A stretch of DNA of 5,468 nucleotides from J061 sp003695725 [NCBI: Candidatus Schekmanbacteria bacterium]. Its GTDB lineage: Bacteria; Schekmanbacteria; GWA2-38-11. A model generated the notes under the pieces. It saw only the letters and a list, made by a program, of their open reading frames with translations, was not told the DNA's origin and did no database searches. Below are positions 1-5,345 of this stretch, in pieces. The position numbers and the translations under genes are program-made. The stretch covers positions 1 through 5,468 of the forward strand of contig RFHX01000273.1 in assembly GCA_003695725.1 (NCBI GenBank), written 5' to 3'. Every line of letters starts with the position of its first letter. Within the stretch, counting starts at the first letter, position 1.

Positions 1-1379
1 GGCGTCTTGAATATTTCTGTAAATGCTCTTTTCAAATCACCTTTGTATCTCCCGGAATTAATTTCAATCCATATCTTATACATTCTTTTATCATAAATAT
101 ATAGAAATGCAGGGTCAAGACCTATTAAATATCGATTTTTTGAATTATAGAAAAAAAGCTCCGGATAATCATCCCAATCTGTCAGATATACAGGCATTCC
201 AATTGCATTTTCATAAAGCCACTTTGCTGCATTTCTATATCTATATGGATTTCTCGTATCAGAAGAGACTTCTTTAGATGCTTTCTGTGAAGTTGTGAAA
301 GCAAGAAGAAGGAAAAAGAAAAAGAAAAAAGGGGTGCTGTATCTTAAAAAAGACCTACTATTCTCTTTTATCTTCGACAAATATTCGTTTCCATAATCCC
401 TGATTATTGTGGCAGAAAAAAGCAATACAAAGGGAACTGCCAATTCAATGAAACGTCTCCACTTATATGCAAAAATAATTAGAGGGATCGATATAAAAAA
501 GAGAGAAAGGGAATCCTTCGCCATTTTTTTTTCACTTACAGCGGAGATATAGAGTGAGACAAGAAAAACAGCAATAAAGGGAAATTGAATCGTGAAAAAT
601 TCCTCCGGTGAAAAGGACATCCATTCGTTGCCGCCTCTGATTGACCTTGTAATACCTGCAGATGTCGTTTGAAAATAGATAAATTTAACATTATCCGGAA
701 AAAAAGGACTTATGATTAGACCGAACAATACGCCGGAAATTGTCGAAACCAATCCTTTATAAGGAAGTCTCTTCTCTTTTATCACATATGTCAAAGATAC
801 AGCTGTAAGAGGAAGAAATATCGAAGAAAAACCACCATAAAAATTTGGAAATACTGCAGAAAAAATAAATAGAAGCAAGTTCTTCTCCTTTAGCATTAAA
901 TACCAGCATAACAAGAGAATAAGGCAGGAAGGGACTGTTGCGCGAGGAAGTGAAAAGCGGAATAGAAATGTCGATGAAAGAGAAAAAAACACAAGTAGCC
1001 ATATAGGAATATTCTTTACAGAAAGTTTTTTCAATATTGATGCCAAGACTATCAGAAAGAGAAAATCGAAGAAAATAGCTGAAATCTTTGCCCCTTCCAT
1101 AAGACCAAATAATAATGAGAAAGGAATCAAAAGAATATGATACAAAAAATGATGGTCAACGAAATTTTTGCCAAAGGGTATATATATCAGCGAGGAAAAA
1201 AGAAAAAAAATACCATTATCATACATTACTTTTGCCATCTTGATATGATAGTAGCCGTCGTATCCAATAATACCGGGATAGGAATATTGAATTCGAATAA
1301 GAAGAAAGATAAGAAAAAGAAGTGTTGTAATGAAAAGAAGAAAAGAAGCTATGTTTGACTTCTTTATATCATAACCCAC
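1..1379 (-). CDS. STT3-like (GT-C fold) membrane glycosyltransferase, 3' end outside window
   Basis: Hand translation of the reverse strand gives 459 uninterrupted codons from a GTG at 1379 to the window edge, with no stop. The protein is a polytopic inner-membrane protein with hydrophobic segments near residues 10-30, 79-95, 101-118, 124-140, 181-198, 208-226, 262-282, 291-304, 313-326 and 348-363. A soluble region starts near 365. Motifs resemble the STT3/PglB/AglB oligosaccharyltransferase family: D41-G-Y-Y-H45 in the first external loop, D75-H-H77 in the next, G249-G-N-E252 in a later loop, and K306-W-R-R-F-I-E312 before a late membrane helix. At the start of the soluble part, D401-W-D-D-Y-P406 lies about where WWDYG sits in STT3, followed by G420-L-D-P423. 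Family members transfer lipid-linked glycans to exported proteins. A pilin or the nearby peptides are possible acceptors, inferred only from context. The gene begins 2 bases after the lipoprotein stop, so translational coupling is likely. It could instead be a lipid- or polysaccharide-modifying GT-C enzyme. Confidence 0.82.
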   Translation of the reverse strand, partial: MGYDIKKSNIASFLLFITTLLFLIFLLIRIQYSYPGIIGYDGYYHIKMAKVMYDNGIFFLFSSLIYIPFGKNFVDHHFLYHILLIPFSLLFGLMEGAKISAIFFDFLFLIVLASILKKLSVKNIPIWLLVFFSLSSTFLFRFSLPRATVPSCLILLLCWYLMLKEKNLLLFIFSAVFPNFYGGFSSIFLPLTAVSLTYVIKEKRLPYKGLVSTISGVLFGLIISPFFPDNVKFIYFQTTSAGITRSIRGGNEWMSFSPEEFFTIQFPFIAVFLVSLYISAVSEKKMAKDSLSLFFISIPLIIFAYKWRRFIELAVPFVLLFSATIIRDYGNEYLSKIKENSRSFLRYSTPFFFFFFLLLAFTTSQKASKEVSSDTRNPYRYRNAAKWLYENAIGMPVYLTDWDDYPELFFYNSKNRYLIGLDPAFLYIYDKRMYKIWIEINSGRYKGDLKRAFTEIFKT

Positions 1380-1381
1380 AA

Positions 1382-2335
1382 TTAAACCTTTTTACCATTA
1401 AGTTCGTTCAACTTTGCCAATAGCTCTTCTGCCCGGCGGGAGTAATTGGTCCCCGGAAATTTTTGGATTACTTCATTTAAATCTTTCTCCGCTTCCGCAG
1501 TGTATTTCGTTTTCTTTTTGTTATCATCTCCTATTTGAACGACTGCTTCTTTTATATCTTCTTGGAAGCCCTTGATACCCTGCCAAGAGTCAATAAATTC
1601 TTCCAAGGACTTTATCCTATTGCTCAGCATTTCAACTCTTTTGATTTTATATTCAGCAATCCAAAGCAAACCTTCAGCCAAATTGTCCTTGTTATTAGGG
1701 AAAGCAGATATGGCGTCTCTAATAATTTTCAATCCCTCCTTTTCATTCTGCAGATTTTCAGTCGTTATCACTCCAATCTTCAAGAGAGCTTTAGCATCAT
1801 AATCTGATTTTATATTATTCTTGACGATTTTGTTGAGTTCCAAAATAGATTTTTCATACTCATCTTTGAGAAGATAAATAAGCGCTTTATGGTAGCGAAT
1901 TCTTTCTTCAATTTCTGTGCCTTCATTTTTTCTTATAATCGTATCTAACTCACGAATTGCACCTTTGAAGAAGGACGAATCCGATGAATTGCTGTTTCCT
2001 GCCAGAAAATTAGCCATATCAACATCGCCAATCATTACTGAATAATTTTTTCTGATTTCAAAAGTCCTCTTCAATTCATCTAAAGCTTTTTTGTCATTGC
2101 CTATTTTCAAATAACAATATCCTTTCAGGTAATGAAGCAGAGCGTTTCCATTATATCTCTTTTCGAGATTTGAAAGAAGGTTTAAAGCAAGGGAATAATT
2201 GGAGGAATTTATCGTTTCTTCGATTTTTTCCAAATCTTTATTTGGAATACGATTGCATCCAAAGGATATGAAAATAAAAAAAAAGACAAGAATAGAAAAA
2301 TATCTCAATGAAGTTGAACTTTTGGAAAAAATCAT
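1382..2335 (-). CDS. TPR-type outer-membrane lipoprotein of unknown role
   Basis: The product is 317 residues from ATG 2335. It begins with a basic N-terminus, a phenylalanine-rich hydrophobic stretch (about 12-23) and an S-F-G-C27 lipobox. The box is atypical because Ser rather than Leu/Val/Ile is at -3, but Cys is in the right place for lipidation. The mature part is charged and helical, with tetratricopeptide-like helix pairs near 32-60, 65-95 and 146-175. It ends with F-P-G-T-N-Y then S-R-R-A-E-E-L-L, reminiscent of the C-terminal TPRs of BamD and YbgF/CpoB-type proteins. Such lipoproteins usually scaffold envelope complexes; by analogy with PilF/PilW-type pilotins it may help pilus assembly, but that is inference. 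A TTG at 2350 would add five residues (M-L-I-K-K). Neither start has a good Shine-Dalgarno: AAGAAG abuts the ATG directly. The gene lies 70 bases after the second peptide gene and 2 bases before the glycosyltransferase, suggesting shared transcription. Confidence 0.8.
   Translation of the reverse strand: MIFSKSSTSLRYFSILVFFFIFISFGCNRIPNKDLEKIEETINSSNYSLALNLLSNLEKRYNGNALLHYLKGYCYLKIGNDKKALDELKRTFEIRKNYSVMIGDVDMANFLAGNSNSSDSSFFKGAIRELDTIIRKNEGTEIEERIRYHKALIYLLKDEYEKSILELNKIVKNNIKSDYDAKALLKIGVITTENLQNEKEGLKIIRDAISAFPNNKDNLAEGLLWIAEYKIKRVEMLSNRIKSLEEFIDSWQGIKGFQEDIKEAVVQIGDDNKKKTKYTAEAEKDLNEVIQKFPGTNYSRRAEELLAKLNELNGKKV
1387..1393 (-). promoter_or_regulatory. Ribosome binding site fixing the GTG start
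   Basis: On the minus strand AAAAAGG is followed by 7 bases and then GTG at 1379. There is no in-frame ATG between this GTG and the in-frame stop at 1394-1392, so the site supports GTG as the true start of the membrane glycosyltransferase. The site lies inside the last codons of the upstream lipoprotein gene. Confidence 0.6.
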
Positions 2336-2405
2336 CTTCTTAATGAGCAAAAGAAGGATAAGTCAAATAGCAAACTACATAAACGATGTTGAAATTAAAC
2401 AAAAA

Positions 2406-2591
2406 CTATTTAACTTCGTGCCAGTTTTTTATTGTCGTTGATGGAGTAAATGGGACAGTATCTCCTCCACCACCTCCATTGACATTTGCATTCGAATTAC
2501 TGTTGTCAGTTGCAATTACTGAGAAGCTGAATACTGTAGTCATAATACCTGCCGCTAATAGAATTGTAAAAAATTTCTTTATTTTTGACAT
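2406..2591 (-). CDS. Small exported peptide B, conserved C-terminal IKNWHEV tail
   Basis: This 61-residue product is not a family I recognise. Residues 1-27 look like a Sec signal peptide: basic M-S-K-I-K-K, a hydrophobic core, and a predicted cut after V-I-A27. The mature peptide would be about 34 residues: an Asn/Ser-rich part (N30-S-N-S, N36-V-N38), a run of five glycines (39-43), a short Thr/Pro segment, and the tail S-T-T-I-K-N-W-H-E-V-K at the very C-terminus. It is clearly related to the gene just upstream (peptide A), sharing the A-x-x-N-x-N-S-x-x-N-V-N pattern around the cleavage site and the tail. The start is well supported by AGGAGG (2597-2602) placed 5 bases before the ATG, one of the best ribosome sites in the window. 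It has no cysteine, so disulfide-type antimicrobial structures are excluded. A pilus-associated peptide, a signal peptide or a modified peptide are possible roles; none is shown. Confidence 0.78.
   Translation of the reverse strand: MSKIKKFFTILLAAGIMTTVFSFSVIATDNSNSNANVNGGGGGDTVPFTPSTTIKNWHEVK
2413..2435 (-). repeat. Direct repeat copy 2: tail-coding segment of peptide B
   Basis: This 23-base segment matches 2635-2657 with one mismatch (position 2418 versus 2640). It encodes T-I-K-N-W-H-E plus the first two bases of the Val codon. Flanking DNA of the two genes is much less alike. Confidence 0.85.
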
Positions 2592-2596
2592 TTCAT

Positions 2597-2602
2597 CCTC
2601 CT
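2597..2602 (-). promoter_or_regulatory. Strong ribosome binding site of peptide B
   Basis: AGGAGG lies 5 bases before the ATG at 2591. It is a full consensus site, in contrast to the weak sites of the pilW-like, pilX-like and lipoprotein genes, and suggests efficient translation of the peptide. Confidence 0.7.
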
Positions 2603-2627
2603 GTCTTTTTCAATTTATAATACATCA

Positions 2628-2813
2628 TTAGTTGACTTCATGCCAGTTTTTTATTGTTGAATTTGGCTGAACATTATTCCCTTGTCCTTGTGGCGCATTT
2701 ACATTCATTTCTGAATTGGTATTTGAATCAGCTCTTGTGGAAACAGTTGAAAACATAAGCACACCAGTGAAAGCCACAATTACCAATATTGCAACAATAA
2801 GTTTCTTTAACAT
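2628..2813 (-). CDS. Small exported peptide A, conserved C-terminal IKNWHEV tail
   Basis: This 61-residue product is the first of a tandem pair and is of unrecognised family. Residues 1-28 form a Sec-type signal peptide (M-L-K-K, then a long aliphatic core, predicted cut after T-R-A28). The mature peptide would be about 33 residues: an Asn/Ser/Gln-rich linker containing N37-V-N39 and P41-Q-G-Q-G-N-N, and then the tail S-T-I-K-N-W-H-E-V-N. No cysteine is present. The start has a strong AAGGAG (2822-2827) with 8-base spacing. It lies 25 bases after the pilX-like stop and 36 bases before peptide B, so it should be expressed with the minor pilins. The hydrophobic N-terminus lacks the G-F-T-L-x-E pattern of a prepilin, so it is probably not a pseudopilin. 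The conserved far C-terminus with a variable linker suggests that the tail is the functional or recognised part; this is inference. Confidence 0.8.
   Translation of the reverse strand: MLKKLIVAILVIVAFTGVLMFSTVSTRADSNTNSEMNVNAPQGQGNNVQPNSTIKNWHEVN
2635..2657 (-). repeat. Direct repeat copy 1: tail-coding segment of peptide A
   Basis: This is the partner of 2413-2435, 23 bases with a single difference (a CAT/CAC His codon). The repeat reflects the shared C-terminal tail of two duplicated peptide genes rather than a mobile element. Confidence 0.85.
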
Positions 2814-2821
2814 TTTTTATT

Positions 2822-2827
2822 CTCCTT
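2822..2827 (-). promoter_or_regulatory. Strong ribosome binding site of peptide A
   Basis: AAGGAG lies 8 bases before the ATG at 2813, in the 25-base gap after the pilX-like stop codon. This short gap leaves little room for a private promoter, so peptide A is probably read from the pilin transcript. Confidence 0.7.
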
Positions 2828-2838
2828 TTTAAAAGATT

Positions 2839-3894
2839 CTACCATTTGTCATAACTGTTTGAAACCCAAAGTCCTGCTGATGAGCCAGATGGATTCCCAG
2901 CGCTTCTCGAAAGCGAGTTTACATCTACAAGCACAACTTTATAAATTTCGCCATTACTGATCGACAGGGCTGGAGCGCCTGATGTATCTGGCACATAATT
3001 TCCTCCACTCAACACACATTCTGGTTCTTCTCCGCTTCCACCTGCATAAACCTTGTAGCGCCACCCTCGAGTGTTGCTCAAACAAAATGTCTTATTGGTT
3101 GTGTTTATTTCAGGTTCACCAACTATCTGCCAATCCGAAGTGGCTAAATTATTATCTCCATCCTTGTAAATGATAATCGCTTTTGTAGTGTTATCGTTTG
3201 TGCATATACCCGTAATTTTGTTGAGTGCAGCATCTATACCTAAATCATTTCCAACACCTCCAATGATTACATTGTTATTTGCAATATTGTCTATATCGCT
3301 GGTACCATCGGAAGGGTCTTTAAAAGTTTGAAAAGACAAAAGATTATTTTCAAATTTTATTTCAATATCAGCTTCTACTTTTTTTGCATTGGTGCCAGAG
3401 AATGTTGACCGCACATTCCTAAATGCGATTACAGTGGGATTTACCCATAACCATTGGGGCCTAGGCAGTGTTATGTCCGCATATTCCGACCCAATAATTA
3501 TGGTCTTATAAAGAGTTGTTGCGTTTTCAGCATTTGCTTCAGAAAGGGGTGTAGTTTTTGCAGCATCTATATACCAAGAAGAATCAACCCAATTCAAAAA
3601 GTTGGTAATCGTGTTTTTTGGTGAATCGCCAACGACATAAATTTGAGTATTCTTGGTTGTGGCGCTTGTGCCGGCAAAATTGCTGACAGCGCTTGATTTC
3701 AAATTACCTTCCGTAACCTCCATACCTCCTTCAGCAACATATAAGGCATCTGTAGCAGTGCGAAGATTGCCTGATATTTTTAATTCAGTTGAAGTTATGA
3801 AAAGTGCACCAACTCCTAAAACTGTCAATATAGCAAGCAAAAACATTGCAAGAGCTAAAACAAATCCATCTCTATTTTTTCTCAATTTCTTCAT
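2839..3894 (-). CDS. pilX: PilX-like type IV pilus minor pilin (assembly/tip subunit)
   Basis: The product is 351 residues from ATG 3894. The leader M-K-K-L-R-K-N-R-D-G10 is followed by F11-V-L-A-L and a hydrophobic helix to about 35. Then comes the PilX N-terminal signature: S-T-E-L-K-I-S-G-N-L-R near 35-45 and Y-V-A-E-G-G-M-E near 52-59. Prepilin peptidase should cut after G10. The mature protein lacks the usual Glu5 (Leu instead), as PilX and GspK proteins commonly do, which fits a tip position. The rest (about 60-351) is a divergent, probably beta-rich periplasmic domain with three cysteines (231, 271, 293) and an acidic D245-G-D-N-N249 loop. An upstream in-frame ATG at 3918 would give 359 residues and overlap the pilW-like gene by 17 bases. 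The 3894 start is preferred because it gives a standard short leader and a 7-base gap. It lies between pilW-like and peptide A in the probable operon. Confidence 0.82.
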   Translation of the reverse strand: MKKLRKNRDGFVLALAMFLLAILTVLGVGALFITSTELKISGNLRTATDALYVAEGGMEVTEGNLKSSAVSNFAGTSATTKNTQIYVVGDSPKNTITNFLNWVDSSWYIDAAKTTPLSEANAENATTLYKTIIIGSEYADITLPRPQWLWVNPTVIAFRNVRSTFSGTNAKKVEADIEIKFENNLLSFQTFKDPSDGTSDIDNIANNNVIIGGVGNDLGIDAALNKITGICTNDNTTKAIIIYKDGDNNLATSDWQIVGEPEINTTNKTFCLSNTRGWRYKVYAGGSGEEPECVLSGGNYVPDTSGAPALSISNGEIYKVVLVDVNSLSRSAGNPSGSSAGLWVSNSYDKW

Positions 3895-3901
3895 AATCAA
3901 A

Positions 3902-4819
3902 TCAATCCAATCCCACATTTCTCAATTTTATTTCAGATTCAAGAGTCATCCTATGATAACCGTCGTTGTATGTATCTCCACAGTTGTAAGTTCCTGAGCT
4001 TGAATAGTAAGGATCTTCCCTCGATGTCCGAGCTACGATTAGAACTTTTATCTTTCTGATACTCTTTCTCTCATCAAGTGACAAATTGATGTTTTTATAG
4101 GGCGATGCGCTGCTAATTTGATTTCCATTTTCATCATAATATTTAAATTCCAGGTAGTCAATATCATCTACAACAGTCTGTGCAGTTGCCCCATCTACTG
4201 AGCGAGTTACCTTAATCGTGGCGGCGTCAGTTGAATGTTTATGGTCAGATGGATTTAGAGAATATGTTACGGTATTGATTATATGAAGCACAGAACCTTG
4301 TGAAAAATCATTAGTCATCGCATTGATATTTAATGTCCCTTCAGAACTTGAAGTTACAGTTGTTGATTCCCACTTATTTCCGTCTGTTATGTAAATTGTA
4401 TCACCACTCTGAAAATTGCCATAATAATTATCCGCCGAGGTATCTGCCACTGTATCAACAGAAAGAGAAGTTTGTCCTGCTGTATAATCTGCTGTAAGAG
4501 ATGCTTTTGCATTGTTCAAGTCAACTAAAAAGGTAATGGAATTTTCAGTAGCATTTGAAATCACGGCTATTTCTGATGGATTGTCAACAGTGGGGATGCC
4601 GTAGCCAATCGAGCGAAATTCTCTTGTAAGCATATCCATCATTGTCCGCGCATTCTGCTGCATTTCGACTATAAGGTCTTGGCTGTTATAGGTTTTTTGC
4701 TGATTATTTAGAAGCGTGTAAAAAGTAATCATCAATATCGATGCAAGGACTACCGATACCATCAATTCAACTAAGGTAAAACCCTTTCTGTCTTTCAATT
4801 TATTCATTGATTTTCTCAT
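3902..4819 (-). CDS. pilW: PilW-like type IV pilus minor pilin
   Basis: The product is 305 residues. The prepilin leader ends in R-K-G13 and is followed by F14-T-L-V-E18-L-M and a hydrophobic helix to about 35, including the conserved Glu5 of mature pilins. The helix continues as Q-Q-N-A-R-T-M-M-D-M-L-T-R-E near 54-67, which is typical of PilW. A Ser/Thr-rich beta segment around 108-182 includes a G-D-T-I-Y-I and later G-S-V-L-H-I pattern. The C-terminus G287-Y-H-R-M-T-L and then L-R-N (299-301) matches the usual PilW ending. PilW acts with PilV and PilX in the inner membrane to prime pilus assembly. It starts 8 bases after the pilV-like stop. An internal ATG (Met5, 4807) would shorten the leader to nine residues; neither start has a clear Shine-Dalgarno, so coupling to pilV translation is likely. 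Confidence 0.87.
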   Translation of the reverse strand: MRKSMNKLKDRKGFTLVELMVSVVLASILMITFYTLLNNQQKTYNSQDLIVEMQQNARTMMDMLTREFRSIGYGIPTVDNPSEIAVISNATENSITFLVDLNNAKASLTADYTAGQTSLSVDTVADTSADNYYGNFQSGDTIYITDGNKWESTTVTSSSEGTLNINAMTNDFSQGSVLHIINTVTYSLNPSDHKHSTDAATIKVTRSVDGATAQTVVDDIDYLEFKYYDENGNQISSASPYKNINLSLDERKSIRKIKVLIVARTSREDPYYSSSGTYNCGDTYNDGYHRMTLESEIKLRNVGLD

Positions 4820-4827
4820 AAATTTCG

Positions 4828-5277
4828 CTATTGGGAAATCACAGTAGTAAAAGATGTTTTCCTCTCTTTTCCAGAATCATTCCATTTGATGATAACTGTA
4901 ATCGTTTTCATATTTGCCGATGGAGAATCATCTGCAATATTCCATATTCTAGTATAAATCCCTCCCGGATTACCCTCTCCATCAATATCAGTCTCACTGT
5001 GGTCAACTGAAGTAGTACTCGTAAGGTCATTATTATTGGCAGGATTGCTGTCCTCAAGGTCGCTGTCATCATAAGATTTATTTTTCAATTCCTCAATCTT
5101 TGTCTGTGCAAGGGATATTGCAGTTGTTAATCGTTTGCTTTGAGCGTTTCCTCGTATGACAGTAGTCACTAAACCTGCAATGGAAAGTAAACCCACAGAA
5201 AGAATGACAATTGCGACAAGTATTTCAACGAGTGTAAATGCGGCTTCGGATTTTTTATCCGATTTTTCTGTATGCAT
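4828..5277 (-). CDS. pilV: PilV-like type IV pilus minor pilin
   Basis: The product is 149 residues from ATG 5277. A hydrophilic leader is followed by F14-T-L-V-E18-I-L-V and a hydrophobic helix containing S27-V-G-L-L-S-I-A-G-L36, typical of PilV. Then come the A-x-x-L-A-Q-T-K-I-E-E-L-K segment (53-65) and a short beta domain with I107-Y-T-R-I-W112 and V128-I-I-K-W132. Glu5 of the mature protein is present. The residue before the predicted cleavage is Ala13 rather than the nearly invariant Gly, which is unusual for a prepilin peptidase substrate. ATG 5301 would add eight residues (M-Q-L-E-G-G-G-S), but its coding bases contain the excellent ribosome site of the 5277 start, so the shorter form is preferred. 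It is the first gene after the AT-rich leader, so probably the first of the operon visible here. A FimU/FimT-type gene is not seen and may lie elsewhere. Confidence 0.87.
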   Translation of the reverse strand: MHTEKSDKKSEAAFTLVEILVAIVILSVGLLSIAGLVTTVIRGNAQSKRLTTAISLAQTKIEELKNKSYDDSDLEDSNPANNNDLTSTTSVDHSETDIDGEGNPGGIYTRIWNIADDSPSANMKTITVIIKWNDSGKERKTSFTTVISQ

Positions 5278-5281
5278 ACTA

Positions 5282-5289
5282 CCTCCCCC
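5282..5289 (-). promoter_or_regulatory. Ribosome binding site deciding the pilV-like start
   Basis: GGGGGAGG is placed 4 bases before the ATG at 5277. Because it would be inside the coding sequence if translation began at 5301, it argues for the downstream start. Confidence 0.65.
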
Positions 5290-5345
5290 TTCAAGCTGCA
5301 TTTATACCATATATTGTCGCCACTTTCCTTAAAAACCTTTAATCA

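What the first reader, a model, noticed from the sequence alone, without database searches (positions are those of the whole stretch)
2406..2813. Tandem family of tiny exported peptides with a conserved IKNWHEV C-terminus inside a pilus operon
Two adjacent 61-residue genes share a plan: signal peptide, low-complexity Asn/Ser/Gly linker of about 22 residues, and an almost identical tail (STIKNWHEVN / STTIKNWHEVK) ending the protein. Conservation is concentrated at the cleavage site (A-x-x-N-x-N-S-x-x-N-V-N) and at the extreme C-terminus, while the linker varies. This looks like a displayed or recognised C-terminal motif: a secreted signal, a pilus-tip ligand, a protease-released peptide or a modified precursor. 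I do not recognise any described family with this tail.
Basis: partly seen in the sequence, partly recalled or inferred. Interest (0 to 1): 0.72.

Follow-up and report, generated by a model that had tools for sequence, protein, structure and literature searches.

The report
Stand-alone donor-strand peptides beside PilX
Next to type IV pilus tip genes, an unnamed bacterial lineage encodes tiny exported peptides whose ends look like the tail with which big tip proteins are thought to clip onto the pilus, suggesting that the clip alone can replace the big protein; this is inferred from sequence and not yet tested.

Summary
Two adjacent 61-codon genes (both on the minus strand, 2406-2591 and 2628-2813) lie between pilX and a TPR-lipoprotein gene. 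Each has a ribosome-binding site, a Sec-like signal peptide, an Asn/Ser/Gly linker and an (S/T)TIKNWHEV tail. Orthologues occur in 2 of the 3 other held genomes of the phylum (two copies, one copy) in the same place; all five end in KNWHE plus at most two residues. No credible homologue was found elsewhere.

The tail is not without precedent. A regex taken from the peptides, [ILVMFY]xxWx[ED] in the last 20 residues, matches 21 of 79 PilX_N C-termini and 12 of 26 PilY1 C-termini, against 5 of 382 control ORFs. The PilX beside the peptides lacks such a tail in all three genomes. PilY1 has no above-cutoff match in the phylum (0 of 4). Published AlphaFold models have the PilY1 C-terminus adding a beta-strand to PilX.

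Best reading: the peptides are stand-alone donor strands, a PilY1-like tail without PilY1, completing the PilX tip. This is inferred. Both monomer structure predictions failed and no complex could be modelled.

The parts
2628..2813 (-). small exported peptide B, 61 aa; signal peptide (likely cut after A28), Asn-rich linker, tail STIKNWHEVN
   Evidence: cleavage site judged by eye
2406..2591 (-). small exported peptide A, 61 aa; signal peptide (likely cut after A27), Asn/Gly linker, tail STTIKNWHEVK
   Evidence: cleavage site judged by eye
2631..2660 (-). proposed donor strand of peptide B (last 10 residues)
   Evidence: (score 13.0 with the PilY1-tail matrix)
2409..2438 (-). proposed donor strand of peptide A (last 10 residues)
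   Evidence: (score 9.3 with the PilY1-tail matrix)
2821..2826 (-). Shine-Dalgarno-like AGGAGA of peptide B
   Evidence: read by eye
2597..2602 (-). Shine-Dalgarno-like AGGAGG of peptide A
   Evidence: read by eye
2839..3894 (-). PilX-type minor pilin (PilX_N), 351 aa from this start, C-terminus ..SNSYDKW without the W-x-E tail; proposed acceptor
3902..4819 (-). PilW-like minor pilin
   Evidence: (PF16074 23.3 bits, below its cut-off of 26; N_methyl above its cut-off)
4828..5301 (-). PilV-like minor pilin
   Evidence: TIGR02523 40.9 bits, below its cut-off of 52.2; prepilin N-terminus above its cut-off
1382..2350 (-). TPR lipoprotein (YbgF/BamD-like TPRs), next gene in the operon in all three genomes; start codon uncertain

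Best explanation
The two peptides are stand-alone donor strands for the type IV pilus tip. After Sec export and signal peptidase cleavage, each would be a 33-34 residue chain: a flexible Asn/Ser/Gly tether and a C-terminal beta-strand (TIKNWHEV). The strand inserts beside the last strands of the pilin domain of PilX, or of a neighbouring minor pilin. It completes or caps the tip complex and licenses pilus initiation, as the C-terminus of the large PilY1 adhesin is modelled to do elsewhere. In this phylum, where PilY1 was not found, the docking strand exists without the adhesin. Shown: the genes, synteny, constraint on the tail, the match of the tail to PilX/PilY1 C-termini, its absence from the adjacent PilX, and no PilY1 detectable with PF05567. 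Inferred: export, cleavage, strand pairing, partner and effect on piliation.
For: (1) The regex was taken from the peptides before C-termini were tallied, though after I had seen some PilX tails. It matches 21 of 79 PilX_N and 12 of 26 PilY1 C-termini, against 5 of 382 control ORFs (one of them itself a PilX) and 1 of 39 other pilins (rows). (2) A matrix built only from PilY1 tails scores the window peptides 9.3 (A) and 13.0 (B); 0.6% and 0.1% of 859 interior controls score as high. The G001 and G002 copies score 10.0, 7.4 and 7.3 (0.4%, 1.3%, 1.4%). (3) The PilX beside the peptides scores 1.4, 3.6 and -4.0 in the three genomes, reached by 25%, 10% and 90% of controls. (4) The 8 PilX followed by PilY1 on the same contig also lack the tail (0 of 8 above the 99% point, others 21 of 71, Mann-Whitney p 0.002), consistent with supply in cis or in trans. 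(5) PF05567 has no above-cutoff match in 4 phylum genomes, while PilQ is present in all 4. (6) The peptide genes follow pilX directly; in L083 pilY1 directly follows pilX. [quoted passage not shown] (7) PMC11046646 (passages): C-terminal 8-residue stretches of M. xanthus PilY1.3 (LQNVYELP) and PilY1.1 (SKVLIYAP) are modelled as strands added to PilX. LQNVYELP lies without gaps on IKNWHEVK (by eye: N and E identical, L/I and L/V alike).
Against: No structure or complex supports it. AlphaFold2 of the window PilX alone and of a tailed PilX (L088) both gave mean pLDDT 34.4. 58 of 79 PilX and 14 of 26 PilY1 C-termini fail the strict regex, and the two M. xanthus strands modelled in print lack the Trp. 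With a matrix from PilX tails the peptides score less well (4.2 to 8.3 against a 99% point of 8.3; peptide B reached by 7% of interior controls). The genome-level split of PilX tails by presence of PilY1 is not significant (1 of 12 against 16 of 55, p 0.13). Absence of PilY1 rests on one Pfam model, and each genome has a large Ig-like or similar exported ORF downstream of pilQ that could be an unrecognised adhesin. The motif is short, so convergence is possible. A scan below the 79 other pilX genes found no comparable exported tail peptide, so the arrangement is known from three genomes only.
Confidence: 0.57

Rival explanations
1. Competitor or terminator: the peptides mimic the docking tail of another tip protein and block or tune pilus initiation, rather than being a structural part of the tip.
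For: Same tail evidence. Two copies in two of three genomes, and a soluble one-strand protein would make a good inhibitor.
Against: Needs another protein carrying the tail for the same PilX. None is seen in the operon and PilY1 was not detected. Paralogous PilX-like proteins with tails exist in G001 and G002, so it is not excluded.
Confidence: 0.15
2. An unrelated secreted ligand or signal (for example for adhesion or cell-cell signalling) whose C-terminal resemblance to PilX/PilY1 tails is coincidence.
For: The motif is short. Small exported peptides with a conserved C-terminus are a common form for signals (general knowledge). Weak database matches such as PhrA (E 0.16) are at noise level.
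Against: Constant place directly after pilX in three genera and a tail shape enriched at PilX and PilY1 C-termini. No receptor gene was recognised nearby, but not every neighbour was scanned.
Confidence: 0.16
3. Ribosomally made, post-translationally modified precursor (the KNWHE tail as the modified core).
For: Conserved Trp-containing C-terminus. One radical SAM/SPASM gene lies about 3.6 kb away in the G002 neighbourhood.
Against: No such gene was recognised among the listed ORFs of the G001 neighbourhood or in the window; the precursors carry Sec-like signal peptides.
Confidence: 0.03
4. Spurious or decaying ORFs.
For: Small and low-complexity, with no database family at a meaningful score.
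Against: Ribosome-binding sites, conserved place, dS above dN in the 7 of 10 pairs where dS could be computed, and mainly third-position changes in the tail codons.
Confidence: 0.02

Closest known systems
PilY1/PilC tip adhesin (PF05567)
   Same: Sec-type signal peptide, gene with pilX (directly after it in L083), C-terminal tail of the same shape in 12 of 26 sampled; its C-terminus is modelled as a strand added to PilX (PMC11046646, PMC13190605, passages)
   Different: PilY1 has a beta-propeller and large N-terminal domains; the peptides are 61 aa with nothing but signal, linker and tail
PilX-type minor pilins with a cis tail (PilX_N, PF14341); T. thermophilus ComZ as structural example
   Same: C-terminal tail of the same shape in 21 of 79. 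[quoted passage not shown]
   Different: There the tail is part of the pilin chain; here it is a separate gene product and the adjacent PilX lacks it
Geobacter PilA-N / PilA-C split major pilin
   Same: A pilin unit made from two separate chains (PMC11046646, passage)
   Different: It concerns the major pilin and a whole 104-aa part, not a single tail strand at the tip
Streptococcus sanguinis PilA-PilC
   Same: One pilus subunit stabilises another, modelled as beta-strand complementation (PMC9934059, passages)
   Different: Both are full pilins

Membership tests
PilY1 (PF05567) | PilY1 beta-propeller domain | tested here: not met
   Pfam scan of both peptides, no PF05567
PilY1 (PF05567) | Sec-type (type I) signal peptide, no prepilin motif | tested here: met
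   Hydrophobic stretch and an A/V/T/I-x-Ala site in all 5 copies; judged by eye, no signal-peptide predictor was available; N_methyl absent from the two window peptides
PilY1 (PF05567) | gene beside the minor pilin genes | tested here: met
   Directly after pilX in 3 of 3 genomes with the peptides
PilY1 (PF05567) | C-terminal strand that adds to PilX | tested here: inconclusive
   Tail scores well with a matrix of PilY1 tails; docking itself not testable here
PilX_N minor pilin (PF14341) | prepilin N-terminus and N-terminal helix | tested here: not met
   No PilX_N or N_methyl match in the peptides
PilX_N minor pilin (PF14341) | C-terminal W-x-E tail seen in about a quarter of the sampled family | tested here: met
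RiPP precursor | conserved neighbouring modification enzyme | tested here: not met
   None shared by the window and the two neighbourhoods, by ORF lists and Pfam scans of part of the genes
Split pilin (PilA-N/PilA-C type) | two chains form one pilin unit | not testable with these tools
   No complex prediction available; monomer models failed

The most novel reading that the evidence does not exclude
Type IV pilus initiation can be licensed by a free, 33-residue exported donor-strand peptide that stands in for the whole PilY1 adhesin, with two paralogous peptides giving alternative tips on the same PilX: a diffusible licensing factor for a type IV filament.
Probability: 0.34. Interest if true: 0.82.

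Novelty: new variant of a known kind. Interest (0 to 1): 0.62.

Why it matters
How the tip of a type IV pilus is built and what licenses extension is an active question. I know strand addition by the PilY1 C-terminus only from published models and from one preprint that I saw as a citation. A lineage that appears to have kept only the docking strand would separate docking and licensing from adhesion, and gives a minimal synthetic peptide to test on purified PilX. The C-terminal W-x-E tail shared by many PilX and PilY1 proteins also gives a simple sequence handle on where that strand may lie. None of nine full-text searches showed, in its listing, a stand-alone strand peptide at a type IV pilus tip; I opened passages of five listed papers only, and each search lists only its best rows.

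Tried and rejected
Structure prediction of the window PilX (single sequence) and of a tailed PilX, L088 with L085: mean pLDDT 34.4 each, so not used, and no fold search was run. PDB sequence searches with L088 PilX and with the PilX alignment: no hit. Viral-contig scan for the tail: 63 pattern matches, none confirmed. The single genome-contig scan, made with the PilX alignment, found six distant PilX loci, none with the tail peptide. A KNWHE match elsewhere in G001 lies inside a 236-aa ORF (methyltransferase-like by eye), not at its end. G003 as a 'natural experiment' (tail in cis at a related operon) was dropped: its sequence there is interrupted by runs of N and its pilX genes look related to other paralogues, so it says nothing on loss or gain. 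A second centre gave one weak match, in G490 (8.2e-4), over the signal peptide only, inside a 376-aa frame; taken as chance. The one weak PF05567 match in the phylum (G000:C100, 11.6 bits) was followed up: the matching piece is Ig-like (Big_1 94.7 bits, Invasin_D3 76.7 bits; PF05567 12.6 bits, cut-off 28.1), in a 1477-aa ORF two genes after pilQ that ends without a W-x-E tail; not a PilY1. Genome-level exclusion of PilX tail and PilY1 was not significant (p 0.13). The phage-family matches of the peptides (best 0.0039) were taken as noise. One search flagged two ORFs after other pilX genes: a 31-aa hydrophobic one without tail (L144) and a 32-aa one with W-A-E near its end but no hydrophobic start (L184); neither resembles the peptides.

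Rows dropped: together list 83 PilX_N places outside the phylum. I analysed 81; one at a contig end (G344) and one left out by oversight (G116, second place on C39, whose ORF appears with a motif) are not in the count. 79 of 81 had a complete C-terminus. PilY1: 28 rows, 27 examined, 26 complete, one of these a broken frame (G235). The 8 PilX followed by PilY1 were picked by hand from the coordinates (same contig and strand, PilY1 downstream); one of the 8 ends in SWSQS. In one search the controls still held several PilX proteins; one search repeats the count with an HMM exclusion, and one PilX remains among its 5 control hits. Controls are ORFs of 150 aa or more in the fetched loci, not confirmed genes.

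Full report
What is there. The window (G000:C273, a 5.5-kb contig of a 2.77-Mb genome) carries a minus-strand minor-pilin operon: PilV-like, PilW-like and PilX_N proteins, then two 61-aa ORFs, then a TPR lipoprotein and a large membrane protein. The two small ORFs have their own Shine-Dalgarno-like sites, a basic N-terminus, a hydrophobic stretch and an x-x-Ala site (judged by eye). A linker of Asn/Ser/Gly follows, then the tail.

Recurrence. Peptide A as a query finds its neighbour B in the own genome (4.7e-7). In 98 genomes it finds copies in G001 (same family, two tandem copies) and G002 (same order, one copy). A five-row profile over 386 genomes finds these five copies (3e-21 to 2e-30); everything else is at 0.004 or weaker. 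A second set of 386 genomes centred elsewhere, partly overlapping, adds only one weak signal-peptide match (8.2e-4). The phylum has four held genomes; the fourth (70% complete) shows only N-terminal matches at 0.19 and 0.49 and no copy. In G001 and G002 the peptides lie between pilX and the TPR lipoprotein gene. Alignment shows KNWHE invariant in all five, at or within two residues of the C-terminus, while signal and linker vary. Codon comparison shows protein-level constraint.

What the tail resembles. Related pilus loci suggested that other PilX-type proteins end in a similar way. I then took a regex from the peptides, [ILVMFY]..W.[ED] within the last 20 residues, and collected C-termini of PilX_N proteins from two genome searches (81 of 83 places outside the phylum analysed). 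It matches 21 of 79 complete C-termini. In the 53 with a Trp in the last 15 residues, the commonest neighbours are I/V at -3, S/A at -1, R/K/Q at +1, E at +2 (26 of 53) and L/V at +3. In PilX interiors the regex matches 20 of 1356 20-mers. Among 382 non-pilin control ORFs it matches 5, one of which is a PilX that escaped the filter.

PilY1. The PilY1-sized protein of L083, directly after pilX, ends in the same way. A PF05567 search over 290 genomes found 26 genomes with PilY1. Of 26 complete C-termini, 12 match the regex, and 23 have a Trp within the last 15 residues. PF05567 has no above-cutoff match in the four genomes of this phylum, although all four have PilQ above its cut-off. The one weak match, in G000, is an Ig-like repeat protein. 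A matrix built from PilY1 tails alone scores the window peptides at 9.3 and 13.0, where 99% of 859 interior controls fall below 7.7. The G001 and G002 copies score 10.0, 7.4 and 7.3, the last two just under that point. The three PilX proteins beside the peptides score 1.4, 3.6 and -4.0. With a matrix of PilX tails the peptides score 4.2 to 8.3 against a 99% point of 8.3, a weaker match.

Cis or trans. The eight PilX followed by PilY1 on one contig have no tail by the PilY1 matrix, against 21 of 71 others with one (Mann-Whitney p 0.002). At genome level the contrast is 1 of 12 against 16 of 55 (p 0.13), so the complementarity is suggestive only. Among the paralogous PilX-like proteins of the phylum that I read, two in G001 C15 end SWKDI, one in G002 C8 ends SWREVQ, one in G002 C43 ends SWAEF and one in G003 ends AWKEVTS. 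One in G001 C4 ends VWKGGG, with a different small ORF after it, and the end of one in G003 cannot be read. So tails in cis and tail peptides co-exist in one phylum, and KNWHE peptides occur only beside the window-type PilX. A scan below the 79 other pilX genes found no comparable peptide.

Mechanism. [quoted passage not shown] In M. xanthus, AlphaFold-Multimer models have C-terminal eight-residue stretches of PilY1.3 (LQNVYELP) and PilY1.1 (SKVLIYAP) adding a strand to PilX (PMC11046646, passages). [quoted passage not shown] That paper cites a 2026 preprint that strand complementation licenses assembly of type IV filaments; I saw only the citation (the preprint is not held). One PilY1 in my sample (G031) has LQNIYELP near its end, close to the published strand. 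Laid without gaps, IKNWHEVK and LQNVYELP share N and E and have like residues at I/L and V/L (by eye). I therefore read the peptides as the docking strand alone: exported, tethered by a flexible linker, and complementing PilX or a neighbouring minor pilin where PilY1 is not found.

Limits. Nothing here shows export, binding or a phenotype. Both monomer structure predictions failed, and complexes could not be modelled. The motif is short, and PilX and PilY1 C-termini are diverse. Absence of PilY1 rests on one Pfam model; large exported ORFs downstream of pilQ in all four genomes could be adhesins of another kind. The lineage is unnamed in these tools, and only three genomes carry the peptides.

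Noticed in passing
L242:3626-8059 (-); L243:5859-8225 (-); L244:4397-8149 (+); L245:5371-7770 (+): A large ORF with a hydrophobic start lies two genes after pilQ in all four phylum genomes (1477, 788, 1250, 799 aa as listed); the G000 piece scanned is Ig-like (Big_1, Invasin_D3). None ends in a W-x-E tail. Candidate pilus-associated adhesin.
   Followed up: partly
L099:6057-6332 (+), G001:C4: A different small ORF with a hydrophobic N-terminal stretch (91 aa as listed, possibly starting later, Pro/Gly-rich end DGGDILTQ) follows another pilX paralogue (ending VWKGGG) in G001; it lacks the KNWHE tail but has the same position and plan.
   Followed up: partly
window 3-1379 (-); L053:5462-6958 (-); L054:6175-7659 (-): A conserved membrane protein of about 495 aa (cut by the contig end in the window; motifs GYDGYYHI and VDHHFLYH) follows the TPR lipoprotein in all three operons, with no Pfam match and (window copy) no NCBIfam match; it recalls GT-C / oligosaccharyltransferase-like enzymes (from memory), hinting at pilus glycosylation.
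   Followed up: no
L053:4734-5510 (-): DUF4124 plus DUF1349 protein directly after the membrane protein in G001; not seen at that place in G002.
   Followed up: no
C-termini of PilX_N and PF05567 proteins, loci L133-L239: A short C-terminal I/V-x-S/A-W-R/K-E-L/V tail is shared by many PilX-type pilins and PilY1 proteins. It may mark the complementing strand.
   Followed up: yes
L239 (G031): A PilY1 with LQNIYELP near its end, close to the published M. xanthus PilY1.3 strand LQNVYELP; it fails my regex, so the regex undercounts such strands.
   Followed up: partly
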